From an uncultured Bacteroidales bacterium (GTDB lineage: Bacteria; Bacteroidota; Bacteroidia; Bacteroidales; UBA932), in the NCBI GenBank assembly GCA_900317925.1, contig ONIQ01000006.1, forward strand, positions 1 to 61,037: a stretch of DNA of 61,037 nt, in the 5' to 3' direction. Shown here in pieces: positions 5,481-9,623 of the stretch; position 1 is the first letter of the stretch; each line of letters starts with the position of its first letter. A program made the position numbers and the translations under genes. A model generated the notes under the pieces. The model had not been told where the DNA came from and made no database searches. It saw only the letters and a list, made by a program, of their open reading frames with translations.

Positions 5481-5538
5481 CAGTGTCCTTTGTGTTTCTC
5501 CTTCTTCATAAAAACTTTTGTCCATATTATTTCGACTT

Positions 5539-5546
5539 CAAAGATA
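5539..5546 (-). promoter_or_regulatory. -7 promoter element for the 5480-3447 operon
   Basis: The minus strand reads TATCTTTG (TAnnTTTG), 58 bases before the chosen ATG at 5480. No good -33 box at the usual spacing. Confidence 0.5.
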
Positions 5547-5590
5547 CTGCTTAAAAAAACAAGAAAAAAGTAAAATTTTTTTCAGAAAAT

Positions 5591-5598
5591 TATTTTTG
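5591..5598 (+). promoter_or_regulatory. -7 promoter element for the RNA candidate
   Basis: TATTTTTG matches TAnnTTTG on the plus strand. Within 140 bases downstream there is no plausible protein gene but there is a foldable segment ending in a strong terminator. Confidence 0.4.
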
Positions 5599-5604
5599 CC
5601 ATAT

Positions 5605-5729
5605 TTGTAAACGACAAGCAGGTCCCCTGTTCAGGGCCCGATAGCTCCGGAGAGCGCTGTATGCTTGTTATTTCAAAGATTGAAAACGAGCTCCTCGGGT
5701 CGAAACAAGGGTGTTTTCAATCTTTTTTT
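5605..5729 (+). ncRNA. Candidate structured small RNA of unknown family
   Basis: About 125 bases lie between a plus-strand TAnnTTTG box and an intrinsic terminator. ACAAGCA (5613-5619) can pair with TGCTTGT (5662-5668). Inside that stem are two small hairpins, CCCTG/CAGGG and GCTC-CGGA-GAGC. A 13-bp terminator stem with a T-run follows. There is no convincing ORF inside. It sits between the flavoprotein operon promoter and the 3' side of the IS110 element. It could be an independent sRNA or an RNA belonging to the element. It lacks the SRP RNA GGAA-loop motif. Confidence 0.45.
5675..5729 (+). terminator. Strong intrinsic terminator
   Basis: AAAGATTGAAAAC (5675-5687) pairs perfectly with GTTTTCAATCTTT (5713-5725), and the 3' arm runs into seven T residues ending at 5729. 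The 25-base loop can form a further CGAG/CTCG stem. The T-run points to plus-strand termination. The hairpin could also act weakly on transcripts leaving the IS110 operon. Confidence 0.65.
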
Positions 5730-5771
5730 ATTCATCTTCAGAATGGTATTGGGTTGCAGTCAGATGGTCGA

Positions 5772-6053
5772 TTACTCTCCGTCTGTTTGGTGGGGGTTAT
5801 AAACAACATCCTCAAAAGGGTCTCTCTTCATCCAAAAGTCATGCAGGTCTCGGATAACCCTGGGATCGCCGAACTCCAGCGGATGCCTGGTCGGGGTCGC
5901 TTCAAGATAAGGAATAATGTCCAGGCACTGTTCCAGTTCGAGGAACAGGCTGCCGAAGAGCTCCATGAAAACGGGATTATAGTCACATAGCTCGTCACCT
6001 CTCCTGACATCGCGGGCAAGCTTTTCGATAAGTTTGAGCGTTTTTGCTTTCAT
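5772..6053 (-). CDS. Small protein coupled to the IS110 transposase
   Basis: A 93-residue acidic protein, mostly predicted helix in the first 50 residues (MKAKTLKLIEKLARDV...), with no signal peptide and no family I recognise. Its ATG overlaps the transposase stop in an ATGA arrangement. A strong Shine-Dalgarno run AGGAGGAGG sits just upstream inside the end of the transposase gene. That is unusual in Bacteroidota, where SD motifs are weak, and argues that the ORF is really translated together with the transposase. It could be a passenger or accessory factor of the element. No function is assigned. Confidence 0.6.
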   Translation of the reverse strand: MKAKTLKLIEKLARDVRRGDELCDYNPVFMELFGSLFLELEQCLDIIPYLEATPTRHPLEFGDPRVIRDLHDFWMKRDPFEDVVYNPHQTDGE

Positions 6054-7114
6054 GACATCGCCTCCTCCTGTTTTTTATCCTGACCATATTCCGGTTTCCA
6101 CTGCTTGCCGCTCTTCCAGAGGGAGTACATCAAGCAAAGAAGCTTCCTCTCCAACGCCACGAGGGCAATGTTCTTGGACTGTGGATGGGAGGCGCATATC
6201 CTGTTGTAGTCCTCCATCAGCTGCGGGTTGCTCCAAGAAGCGACCATGGCCGGGAAGTACAACCCGGCACGAAGGTGGGCGTTGCCCCGCTTGGTCATAT
6301 GCCCTTTTTTGTCTGTGTCGCCGGACTGCTCCTTCTTGACGTCCAGACCGGCATAACTGGCTACCTGCTTGGCGCTGGTCATCTGGTGAAAGCCAAACGT
6401 CTCTGCGGTGACCAGGATGGCGGTCTTCTTGCCGATGCACTTGATGGACTCCATATTATCCACCCCGGCTTTGATGACCGGGTCGCCATTGACCAGTTCG
6501 GCCATATCCTGTTCATTGGCTGCCTGAACCTTCTCAATGGACTTGAGCAGTGTCTTATGGGCTTTCAGGACGCTCTTGGTCACATATCCGGAGTACGTTA
6601 CGGACTCCATCCTGCCAAGGACCTGCGTACGCGTCTTCTCCAGCTGCTCGGAAAGACGGCTCATATCCCTGAGCTGAAGATACTTCTCATCCGGAATGGG
6701 CCACGGTTTGAGTCCGGGAGTATCGCAGCCCATCGTTGCCAGCATCTTGCTGTCAACGGGGTCCGTCTTGGTTCTCTGCCCGTTGAGCCGTGCGAAGTTC
6801 TTTGCCTTATTGGCATGTACGATGATGACCGTCATGCCCTTTCGGGCCAGGAAAAGAGCGAGGGACTCATGATAACATCCTGTCGTCTCCATGAGGAAAG
6901 AATACGGAACGGAACTGTCGACCTCATTCCCGCTCCATGCCAGTAAGTGTCTGAAGCCCGGTTCGGAGTTCTCAAACTCCTTCGGCTTCGTGTAGAAGTG
7001 CAGGTCCTGCTCGGTGCTCTGACAAAGACAGAACGTGAACTTCTTCTTGGAGACATCTATGCCGATGCATTGTCGGCGCAGCCTGTCTCCATCCTTGAGT
7101 TGTAAGTGCTTCAT
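6050..7114 (-). CDS. IS110-family transposase (DEDD RuvC-like, serine C-terminal domain)
   Basis: A 354-residue full-length transposase. The N-terminal RuvC-like domain shows D20 (CIGIDVSKKKF), E76 (METTGCYHE), and D118 and D121 (KTDPVDSKML), the DEDD set. A central coiled-coil-like helix is at about residues 150-200. The C-terminal domain has the helix-hairpin-helix region SIKCIGKKTAILVTAETFG and the conserved block MTSAKQVASYAGLDVKKEQSG...KRGNAHLRAGLYFPAMVA that holds the catalytic Ser of IS110 enzymes. These enzymes act as RNA-guided recombinases with a bridge RNA from the element's own noncoding end. The reading frame is intact. Confidence 0.93.
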   Translation of the reverse strand: MKHLQLKDGDRLRRQCIGIDVSKKKFTFCLCQSTEQDLHFYTKPKEFENSEPGFRHLLAWSGNEVDSSVPYSFLMETTGCYHESLALFLARKGMTVIIVHANKAKNFARLNGQRTKTDPVDSKMLATMGCDTPGLKPWPIPDEKYLQLRDMSRLSEQLEKTRTQVLGRMESVTYSGYVTKSVLKAHKTLLKSIEKVQAANEQDMAELVNGDPVIKAGVDNMESIKCIGKKTAILVTAETFGFHQMTSAKQVASYAGLDVKKEQSGDTDKKGHMTKRGNAHLRAGLYFPAMVASWSNPQLMEDYNRICASHPQSKNIALVALERKLLCLMYSLWKSGKQWKPEYGQDKKQEEAMS

Positions 7115-7322
7115 GCTGAAGATGAATTATGAAGTTGAACATACGGTCTTCCCCATAATCCACCGCTTTGACTCTTGGATGAACTCAAGATCGGCCAGTG
7201 CCGTCCTATTATACCTTGCCCAAGCTCCAGAGAATGGGAAAAGGAAGGGGACGACAGAAACTTTGTCGCGGTATAGCAAAGCTTACCAAGATAACGCTCC
7301 GCTCGTCCCCCAAGACCTCCTT
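7115..7322 (-). ncRNA. IS110 leader: candidate bridge RNA
   Basis: About 208 bases lie between a minus-strand TAnnTTTG box and the transposase ATG, with no ORF needed to explain them. The segment folds: GGGGACGA (7247-7254) pairs with TCGTCCCC (7303-7310), and inside it GGTATAGC-AAA-GCTTACC (7270-7287) makes a hairpin. A further CTTG/CAAG hairpin lies near 7170-7190. IS110 elements encode the bridge RNA in such 5' noncoding ends, with loops that recognise target and donor DNA. The position and foldability fit; the guide loops could not be assigned by eye. Confidence 0.5.
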
Positions 7323-7328
7323 TGTCCG

Positions 7329-7336
7329 CAAAAATA
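7329..7336 (-). promoter_or_regulatory. -7 promoter element for the IS110 leader
   Basis: The minus strand reads TATTTTTG (TAnnTTTG). Initiation a few bases downstream would give a leader of about 208 bases before the transposase ATG. Confidence 0.45.
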
Positions 7337-7369
7337 CGAAAATAGGATGGCCCCGGTCCTTCTCCCTCC

Positions 7370-7409
7370 GACAGGATGGTGGCGGATGGCCATCCGCCAC
7401 CATCCTGTC
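7370..7409. repeat. Perfect 40-bp palindrome
   Basis: Left arm 7370-7389 (GACAGGATGG...GGCGGATGG) is followed directly by its exact reverse complement at 7390-7409, with no spacer and no mismatch. It lies upstream of the IS110 promoter, at or just inside the bracketed left end of the element. No T-run follows on either strand. It may block transcription entering the element, or be the hairpin target that the element recognised. Confidence 0.85.
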
Positions 7410-7430
7410 AAGAGTCGAAAAAACTTCCTG

Positions 7431-7502
7431 GTGCAAAAGTAAGAGTTAGCGTATCTTTCGTTCCGAAATAAAAAACTGATATGGACAATGATATGGACAA
7501 TT
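7431..7502 (-). repeat. Promoter/operator block, copy A
   Basis: Matches copy B at 9561-9623 with a few substitutions. Read on the minus strand it has tandem TTGTCCAT boxes, then TATTTCGGAACG-AAGATAC, then a TAnnTTTG box (TACTTTTG, 7434-7441). On the plus strand the boxes are two TATGGACAA direct repeats with a 12-base period (7480-7488 and 7492-7500). It points at the IS110 element, so the gene it once served may have been displaced by the insertion. Confidence 0.65.
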
Positions 7503-7564
7503 GCGCATTATTCCGGCAATCAGTTTTTTGTTTCTCTTTTCACGAAAAGTGGTAACTTTACCAC

Positions 7565-9560: not shown

Positions 9561-9623
9561 GCAAATATAGTGTATCTTACGTTCCGAAATACAATACAAT
9601 ATGGACAATGATGTGGACAATTA
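9561..9623 (-). repeat. Promoter/operator block, copy B
   Basis: Second copy of the block at 7431-7502. It contains GTATCTTACGTTCCGAAATA and two direct repeats TATGGACAA (9601-9609) and TGTGGACAA (9613-9621), again 12 bases apart. It lies in the divergent gap between the zinc-ribbon gene and the regulator at 9701. A third related box, TATGGACAAA, lies on the minus strand at about 9540-9549. Confidence 0.65.
9563..9570 (-). promoter_or_regulatory. -7 promoter element for the zinc-ribbon gene
   Basis: The minus strand reads TATATTTG (TAnnTTTG), giving a leader of about 30 bases to the ATG at 9529. Confidence 0.5.

What the first reader, a model, noticed from the sequence alone, without database searches (positions are those of the whole stretch)
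7115..7336. Structured IS110 leader, candidate bridge RNA
Seen: a TAnnTTTG box at 7329-7336, about 208 noncoding bases before the transposase, and stems at 7247-7254/7303-7310 with an internal hairpin at 7270-7287. Known: IS110 transposases are guided by a bridge RNA from the noncoding end. Inferred: this leader is that RNA, in a Bacteroidales element where few examples are described.
Basis: partly seen in the sequence, partly recalled or inferred. Interest (0 to 1): 0.72.

Follow-up and report, generated by a model that had tools for sequence, protein, structure and literature searches.

The report
Jumping gene's guide RNA targets promoters
The noncoding stretch in front of this Bacteroidales jumping gene very probably makes a 'bridge RNA' that pairs with the element's own ends and with its insertion site, and in this subfamily the insertion site looks like the -7 box of ordinary host promoters.

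Summary
Confirmed, with one correction. Window 5542-7443 (-) is a 1,902-bp IS110-group element. Its 329-nt left end encodes a bridge RNA: 5' stem-loop, target-binding loop (TBL, 7247-7310) and donor-binding loop (DBL, 7148-7242). A covariance model built only from 13 distant relatives ranks 7245-7313 first in the window (E 6e-4). TBL stems covary in relatives (0/500 shuffles). All four guides match their own target or donor better than those of other elements (0/20,000 permutations each). The core is CT.

In 19 of 19 rows with both ends mapped, the circle junction puts a right-end TTG exactly 20 nt before a TA-starting left-end box (12 of 19 are strict TAnnTTTG), i.e. a Bacteroidota-type promoter formed on excision.

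Less expected is the target: this copy interrupts the -7 box TAACTTTG, intact in five other genomes, and the subfamily's target guides spell about TATCTTTG. This rests on four copies. This copy's own guide match is imperfect (equalled by 51 of 6,146 CT sites elsewhere in the window). No RNA or activity was measured.

The parts
5542..7443 (-). whole IS110-group element, 1,902 bp, counted with one CT core
   Evidence: homology with copies L007, L008 and G1146 fragments stops just outside; uninterrupted site in L104
7444..7455 (-). left half of the target, GATACGCTAA plus core CT (7444-7445)
   Evidence: same letters in five uninterrupted genomes, followed by TTTG
5533..5541 (-). right half of the target, TTGAAGTCG; with CT it completes the -7 box TAACTTTG of the gene starting at 5525
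7434..7441 (-). left-end -7 box TACTTTTG; -7 half of the predicted circle-junction promoter
   Evidence: TTG of the right end lies 20 nt before it in the joined ends; 19 of 19 rows
7370..7409 (-). 18-bp palindromic hairpin, role unknown
   Evidence: arms differ but stay paired in L007 and L008; one imperfect copy in G1146
   Evidence: fold of window, L007 and G1146 copies; L008 folds less clearly there
7247..7310 (-). target-binding loop: stem arms 7303-7310 / 7247-7254, tip hairpin 7270-7287 with bulged A
   Evidence: covariance model from relatives; covariation in relatives
7289..7297 (-). left target guide (LTG) GCGTTATCT
   Evidence: own target ranks first of 20 targets, 6.5 of 8; best 8-nt match to the target in 306 nt of left end, none as good in 230 nt of right end
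7261..7267 (-). right target guide (RTG) GACAAAG, pairs with CTTTG (5 of 7)
   Evidence: same offset after the tip as in relatives
7148..7242 (-). donor-binding loop, tip hairpin 7189-7205 with bulged A
   Evidence: single-sequence fold and the same plan in relatives; not tested with a model
7208..7219 (-). left donor guide (LDG) GCAAGGTATAAT, weak match to right end GCAGTAT-CT (5.5 of 9)
   Evidence: position matches relatives, where LDG scores 7.5-9 of 9
7172..7178 (-). right donor guide (RDG) CCAAGAG, of which AAGAG pairs with left end CTCTT (5 of 5)
   Evidence: co-changes with the left end across 18 rows
6050..7114 (-). IS110 recombinase, 354 aa, aligned catalytic residues D20, E76, D118, D121, S264
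   Evidence: PF01548, PF02371; NF033542 'IS110 family RNA-guided transposase'; alignment to IS621 and ISCro4; positions
5772..6053 (-). accessory ORF, 93 aa, start overlaps the recombinase stop (ATGA)
5614..5725 (-). two hairpins of the right end (5675-5725 and 5614-5669)
   Evidence: folds, coordinates
5542..5563 (-). right end CTTGTTTTTTTAAGCAGTAT-CT: TTG 5560-5562 (-33 half of the junction promoter) and left donor GCAGTAT plus core CT (5542-5543)

Best explanation
The left end of this IS110-group element encodes a bridge RNA. On excision the two ends join at a CT core; the joint brings a TTG of the right end to exactly 20 nt before a TAnnTTTG box of the left end, which should form a Bacteroidota-type promoter that transcribes the bridge RNA and then the recombinase (inferred from sequence). 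The recombinase uses the target-binding loop to pair with both strands of a target around CT and the donor-binding loop to pair with the joined ends, and exchanges strands at CT without target duplication (mechanism taken from IS621; the pairing is shown here by guide-site correlation). In this subfamily the target guides spell about TATCTTTG, so the element enters -7 boxes of host promoters (sites observed; that the guides cause the choice is inferred).
For: Recombinase family and catalytic residues. Ends and core from copies and an uninterrupted site. Model from 13 relatives ranks 7245-7313 first in the window, E 6.4e-4. Covariation 0/500. Guides against cognate versus other sites: LTG 6.26 vs 4.04 of 8 (21 rows), RTG 6.28 vs 4.35 of 7 (18 rows); LDG 7.94 vs 7.08 of 9 (17 rows), RDG 4.97 vs 4.35 of 5 (18 rows); 0/20,000 permutations in each. 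Junction spacing of 20 nt in 19 of 19 rows.
Against: This copy's own matches are partial: LTG 6.5/8, RTG 5/7, LDG 5.5/9; its summed target score is equalled or passed by 51 of 6,146 CT positions elsewhere in the window. In 5 of 20 rows the LTG does not rank its own target first, among them the sister copy in G1146 (L102, rank 7). Only 12 of 19 left-end boxes are strict TAnnTTTG. The model missed 11 of 21 further loci at E up to 1. TBL rows and tips were picked with the help of single folds, so the paired percentage leans towards the structure. No RNA data.
Confidence: 0.93

Rival explanations
1. The bridge RNA lies in the right end, as in IS1111-type elements, and the left end is only a leader.
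For: The right end is long (230 nt noncoding plus a small ORF) and has two strong hairpins; model R1 has a second hit at 5561-5633 (-), E 0.011.
Against: Target and donor guides lie in the left end in the relatives. For this copy the best 8-nt match to the target is the LTG in the left end (6.5) and the best in the right end is 5.5. No significant inverted repeat between the terminal 60 nt of both ends: longest 7 nt, a T run, reached in 25 of 300 shuffles.
Confidence: 0.03
2. The left end is a structured leader that controls recombinase translation or transcription only; the guide resemblance is incidental.
For: It lies directly upstream of the ORF; a weak hairpin is predicted over the start codon (-3.9 kcal/mol).
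Against: Four separate guide-site correlations, which a leader does not predict.
Confidence: 0.02
3. It is a bridge RNA, but the promoter box is not a programmed target: insertion at TAnCTTTG in this subfamily is a coincidence of few sites.
For: Four copies only. The full uninterrupted site is known for one (this copy); for G1146 only the left flank aligns to an uninterrupted locus (67% identity, query cut at the core) and its right-end fragment has an unrelated flank. In L007 the next ORF of 60 aa or more starts about 190 nt after the right end, so a promoter is not shown there. TATCTTTG is common in the window (7 vs 1.23 expected).
Against: Right flanks begin CT-TTG in 4 of 4 copies; left flanks end TA(A/T)CT in 3 of 3 readable. 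All four LTGs contain TATCT and the three complete RTGs contain ACAAAG.
Confidence: 0.25

Closest known systems
IS621 bridge RNA system, IS110 group (PMC11208160 sections 5, 6, 12 and passages; PMC11208158 passages)
   Same: DEDD plus serine recombinase, left-end RNA with 5' stem-loop, target loop then donor loop, CT core, promoter formed at the circle junction.
   Different: Longer left end (329 nt; the IS621 RNA is about 177 nt), an extra palindromic hairpin, accessory ORF, Bacteroidota-type rather than sigma-70 junction promoter, target a promoter box (IS110 elements are reported at REP sites and others).
ISEc21 seekRNA, IS110 family (PMC11187229 passages)
   Same: NCR upstream of the recombinase gives a guide RNA with parts matching both target strands.
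   Different: ISEc21's target is a conserved stretch in IS3-family transposase genes; its letters were not compared here.
ISCro4 transposase (PDB 9t56)
   Same: Closest solved structure by sequence (phmmer E 2.4e-32).
   Different: Its RNA and target were not compared here.

Membership tests
IS110 family, IS110 group | RuvC-like DEDD domain (PF01548) and Transposase_20 domain with catalytic serine | tested here: met
   numbering against IS621 assumes a two-residue offset in the PDB chain
IS110 family, IS110 group | guide RNA encoded upstream of the recombinase (left end) | tested here: met
   structure and guides located in the left end; expression not tested
IS110 family, IS110 group | target and donor guides on both strands around a core | tested here: met
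   met across relatives; partial for this copy
IS110 family, IS110 group | insertion at a core without target duplication | tested here: met
   this copy against L104
IS110 family, IS110 group | promoter formed at the joined ends of the circle | tested here: inconclusive
   sequence spacing fits in 19 of 19 rows, activity and circle not tested
IS110 family, IS110 group | RNA bound by the recombinase | not testable with these tools
   needs biochemistry
IS1111 group | subterminal inverted repeats of 7-17 bp | tested here: not met
   terminal 60 nt of each end: longest exact inverted repeat is 7 nt, a T run, 25 of 300 shuffles reach it
IS1111 group | guide RNA downstream of the recombinase (right end) | tested here: not met
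   only the left target match was compared in the right end (best 5.5 against 6.5 in the left end); no right-end model was built

The most novel reading that the evidence does not exclude
A natural bridge RNA whose target guides are set to the -7 box (about TATCTTTG) of its host's housekeeping promoters, so that the element can enter very many promoters. Its right end is built so that right-end GCAGTAT-CT plus the target's TTG re-form a -7 box for the downstream gene, while its own bridge RNA promoter exists only in the excised circle.
Probability: 0.5. Interest if true: 0.68.

Novelty: new member of a known kind. Interest (0 to 1): 0.5.

Why it matters
It gives a worked set of Bacteroidota IS110 bridge RNAs with four guides and mapped ends. 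In the held library no paper joins 'bridge RNA' with 'Bacteroidota' or 'IS110' with 'TAnnTTTG'. Such recombinases are candidates for insertion tools in gut Bacteroidales. If the -7 targeting holds, it is a mobile element that uses RNA guidance to enter promoters, with direct consequences for expression of the host genes. The fixed 20-nt junction spacing is a simple, testable rule for how these elements switch on after excision.

Tried and rejected
Rfam scan of the window: nothing at gathering thresholds. RNAalifold on the first MAFFT alignment A1 gave 0 pairs; two of its rows (L040, L042) looked shifted at the tip, so they were dropped and A2 made. A first RTG count (8 nt, offsets 2-8) gave 30 of 20,000 permutations; length was then set to 7 and offsets to 0-9, giving 0/20,000, and length 5 also 0/20,000. 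A loose RDG scan (7 nt anywhere in 50 nt) separated poorly (5.78 vs 5.34, 0/20,000) and was replaced by 5 nt in 30 nt. Viral contigs held no relative of the recombinase or of the accessory ORF. The idea that the right end copies a common native promoter was weakened: TTTTTNNAGCAGTATCTTTG occurs in 1 of 61 genomes, namely this element itself (altered pattern 0 of 61), though 27-47-nt look-alikes stand before ORFs in L106, L107, L108 and L115. A search for the right flank of the G1146 copy in 151 genomes gave two short matches; that flank does not match the locus to which the left flank aligns, so the two G1146 fragments may be different insertions. A sigma-70 and terminator scan of 5500-7500 was not above shuffles.

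Rows used and left out. Of the loci listed, searches used 19 plus L102, and L060 was added. Left out: the window's own repeats (L001, L004, L005), L007 (left flank missing; its RTG match to CTTTGTC was seen by eye), same-genome duplicates (L063, L066, L068, L070, L064, L067, L069, L071), partial copies (L011, L061, L065), and copies in which I recognised no CT-NN-TA end (L010, L012, L041, L047, L048, L049). Ends, tips and anchors were picked by eye. A2 holds 13 of the 20 rows. The 19 junction rows include two pairs of near-identical elements (L009/L008, L045/L052), so 17 distinct ones. Empty sites were read in five of the 15 stretches fetched.

The confidence of the 'coincidence' rival was raised from 0.20 to 0.25 for this.

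Full report
What is there. The minus-strand ORF 6050-7114 is an IS110 recombinase: PF01548 and PF02371 pass their cut-offs, and NCBIfam names it 'IS110 family RNA-guided transposase' at 192.5 bits against a cut-off of 140. It aligns to ISCro4 and IS621. Residues corresponding to IS621 D11, E60, D102, D105 and S241 (named in PMC11208158, passages) are D20, E76, D118, D121 and S264 (this assumes a two-residue offset in the PDB chain).

Ends. Other copies are L007 and L008 from named genomes and two contig-end fragments in genome G1146. Homology stops at 5539 and about 7448, which includes a few letters shared with the target. In five other genomes (L104, L105, L111, L112, L113) the site is uninterrupted and reads CGCTAACTTTG; in L104 both sides align. 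This copy reads CGCTAACT-[element]-TTGAAGTCG. The element is therefore 5542-7443 with core CT and no duplication. A paralogous promoter inside the window (9568-9622) has TATATTTG at the same place.

Relatives. Searches of 150, 393 and 395 genomes gave distant relatives, the best at about 30-40% identity, two of them in five copies per genome, which helped to fix the ends.

Structure. Singly folded left ends share one plan: a long stem, a tip hairpin with a bulged A, a linker, and a second loop whose tip often has the same bulge. On 13 relatives the TBL has 96% of cells paired, 9 of 10 pairs with changes on both sides, and 0 of 500 shuffles as high; slid controls give 27-53%. Rows were chosen with the help of folds, so that percentage leans towards the structure. 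The stronger test is a model of those 13 rows, without this subfamily: it ranks 7245-7313 (-) first in the window (24.2 bits, E 6.4e-4, filters off), then 5561-5633 (E 0.011, in the AT-rich right end). Of 21 further loci it hits 10 at E up to 1, including L008 (1.3e-4), L007 (9.4e-4) and the truncated L102 (0.013), and misses 11. The DBL was not tested with a model.

Guides. LTG lies just 5' of the tip; RTG starts 2-3 nt after it. Over 21 rows LTG scores 6.26 of 8 on its own left target against 4.04 on others. Over 18 rows RTG scores 6.28 of 7 against 4.35. Both gave 0 of 20,000 permutations, with the cognate best or tied best in 16 of 21 and 15 of 18. The shared core CT is part of both scores. 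LDG scores 7.94 of 9 against 7.08 (17 rows) and RDG 4.97 of 5 against 4.35 (18 rows), 0 of 20,000 each. Left ends CTCGT, CTCCT, CTCAT, CTTTT and CTCTT go with guides such as ACGAG, AGGAG, ATGAG, AAAAG and AAGAG.

This copy. Its LTG ranks its own target first of 20 (6.5 of 8) and L008's is 8 of 8, but the G1146 copy's (L102) ranks seventh. Its RTG pairs CTTTG (5 of 7); by eye, L007's RTG is the complement of its right flank CTTTGTC. Its LDG is weak (5.5 of 9) and its RDG complete (5 of 5). Within its own ends the LTG is the best 8-nt match to the target (6.5; best in the right end 5.5). Taken alone, its target score is equalled or passed by 51 of 6,146 CT positions elsewhere in the window, so this single match would not convince without the relatives.

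Promoter. In 19 of 19 rows with both ends mapped (17 distinct elements), joining the ends puts TTG exactly 20 nt before the TA of the left-end box; no other spacing has TTG in more than 4. The box is strict TAnnTTTG in 12 of 19; the others read TATTTTAT, TATGTTTA, TATGTTAA or TATCTTTA. The phylum's primary promoter is TAnnTTTG at -7 and TTTG near -33 (PMC7366714, passages). IS621 is known to rebuild a promoter at the junction (PMC11208160, sections 5, 6 and 12, passages). In the integrated window copy I see no TTG 20 nt before the left-end box (sequence), so the junction promoter should be off until excision (inference).

Target. In the four copies of the subfamily the right flank begins CT-TTG in 4 of 4 and the left flank ends TA(A/T)CT in 3 of 3 readable. 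This copy interrupts TAACTTTG in front of the gene starting at 5525. The left flank of the G1146 copy aligns (67% over 342 positions, query cut at the core) to an uninterrupted locus in this genome's contig C38, where TATCTTTG is followed six bases later by ATG. The G1146 right-end fragment is followed by TTG and, within 30 nt, the ATG of another ORF; it does not match that locus, so the two fragments may be two insertions. In L007 the next ORF lies about 190 nt away, so a promoter is not shown there. TATCTTTG occurs 7 times in the window against 1.23 expected, 0 of 100 shuffles reaching 7; one of the 7 is the element's own right junction. The guides (TATCT and ACAAAG) spell this box. Because the right end finishes GCAGTAT-CT, target TTG re-forms TATCTTTG for the downstream gene; whether it is used is unknown.

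Literature. Seen: PMC11208160 (outline, sections 5, 6, 12, passages); passages of PMC11208158, PMC11187229, PMC7366714 and PMC12632263; listings. No paper of the held library has 'IS110' with 'TAnnTTTG' or 'bridge RNA' with 'Bacteroidota'; subscription papers, preprints and supplements are not covered.

Verdict. The promoter-box target is what a specialist would not expect, and it rests on four copies.

Noticed in passing
window 7370-7409: An 18-bp palindromic hairpin just inside the left end; arms differ but stay paired in L007 and L008. Role unknown.
   Followed up: partly
window 5772-6053: A 93-aa accessory ORF starts inside the recombinase stop (ATGA). No Pfam or NCBIfam match; found in 1 of 199 family genomes, its own; open in L007, with a 19-bp deletion in L008.
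   Followed up: partly
window 5675-5732; right ends of L010, L039, L040, L042, L043: Right-end hairpin preceded by an A run; in these five relatives the stem sequence differs but pairs, followed by ACAAGATA-like letters. On the opposite strand it would be a stem followed by T's, perhaps a stop for antisense transcription; the terminator scan did not list it.
   Followed up: partly
window 7449-7510 and 9568-9622: A repeated TATGGACAAT-type motif upstream of two -7 boxes, perhaps a shared operator; the element separates it from the gene starting at 5525.
   Followed up: no
L059, upstream region: The left end appears twice in tandem.
   Followed up: no
L045 and L052: Two copies in one genome share the target right half CTTGAACTA, but the RTG of L052 has drifted (5 of 7 against 7 of 7), perhaps reprogramming under way.
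   Followed up: no
phage records: 21 phage records hold IS110-like recombinases at E up to 1e-10, 10 of them named Inovirus.
   Followed up: no
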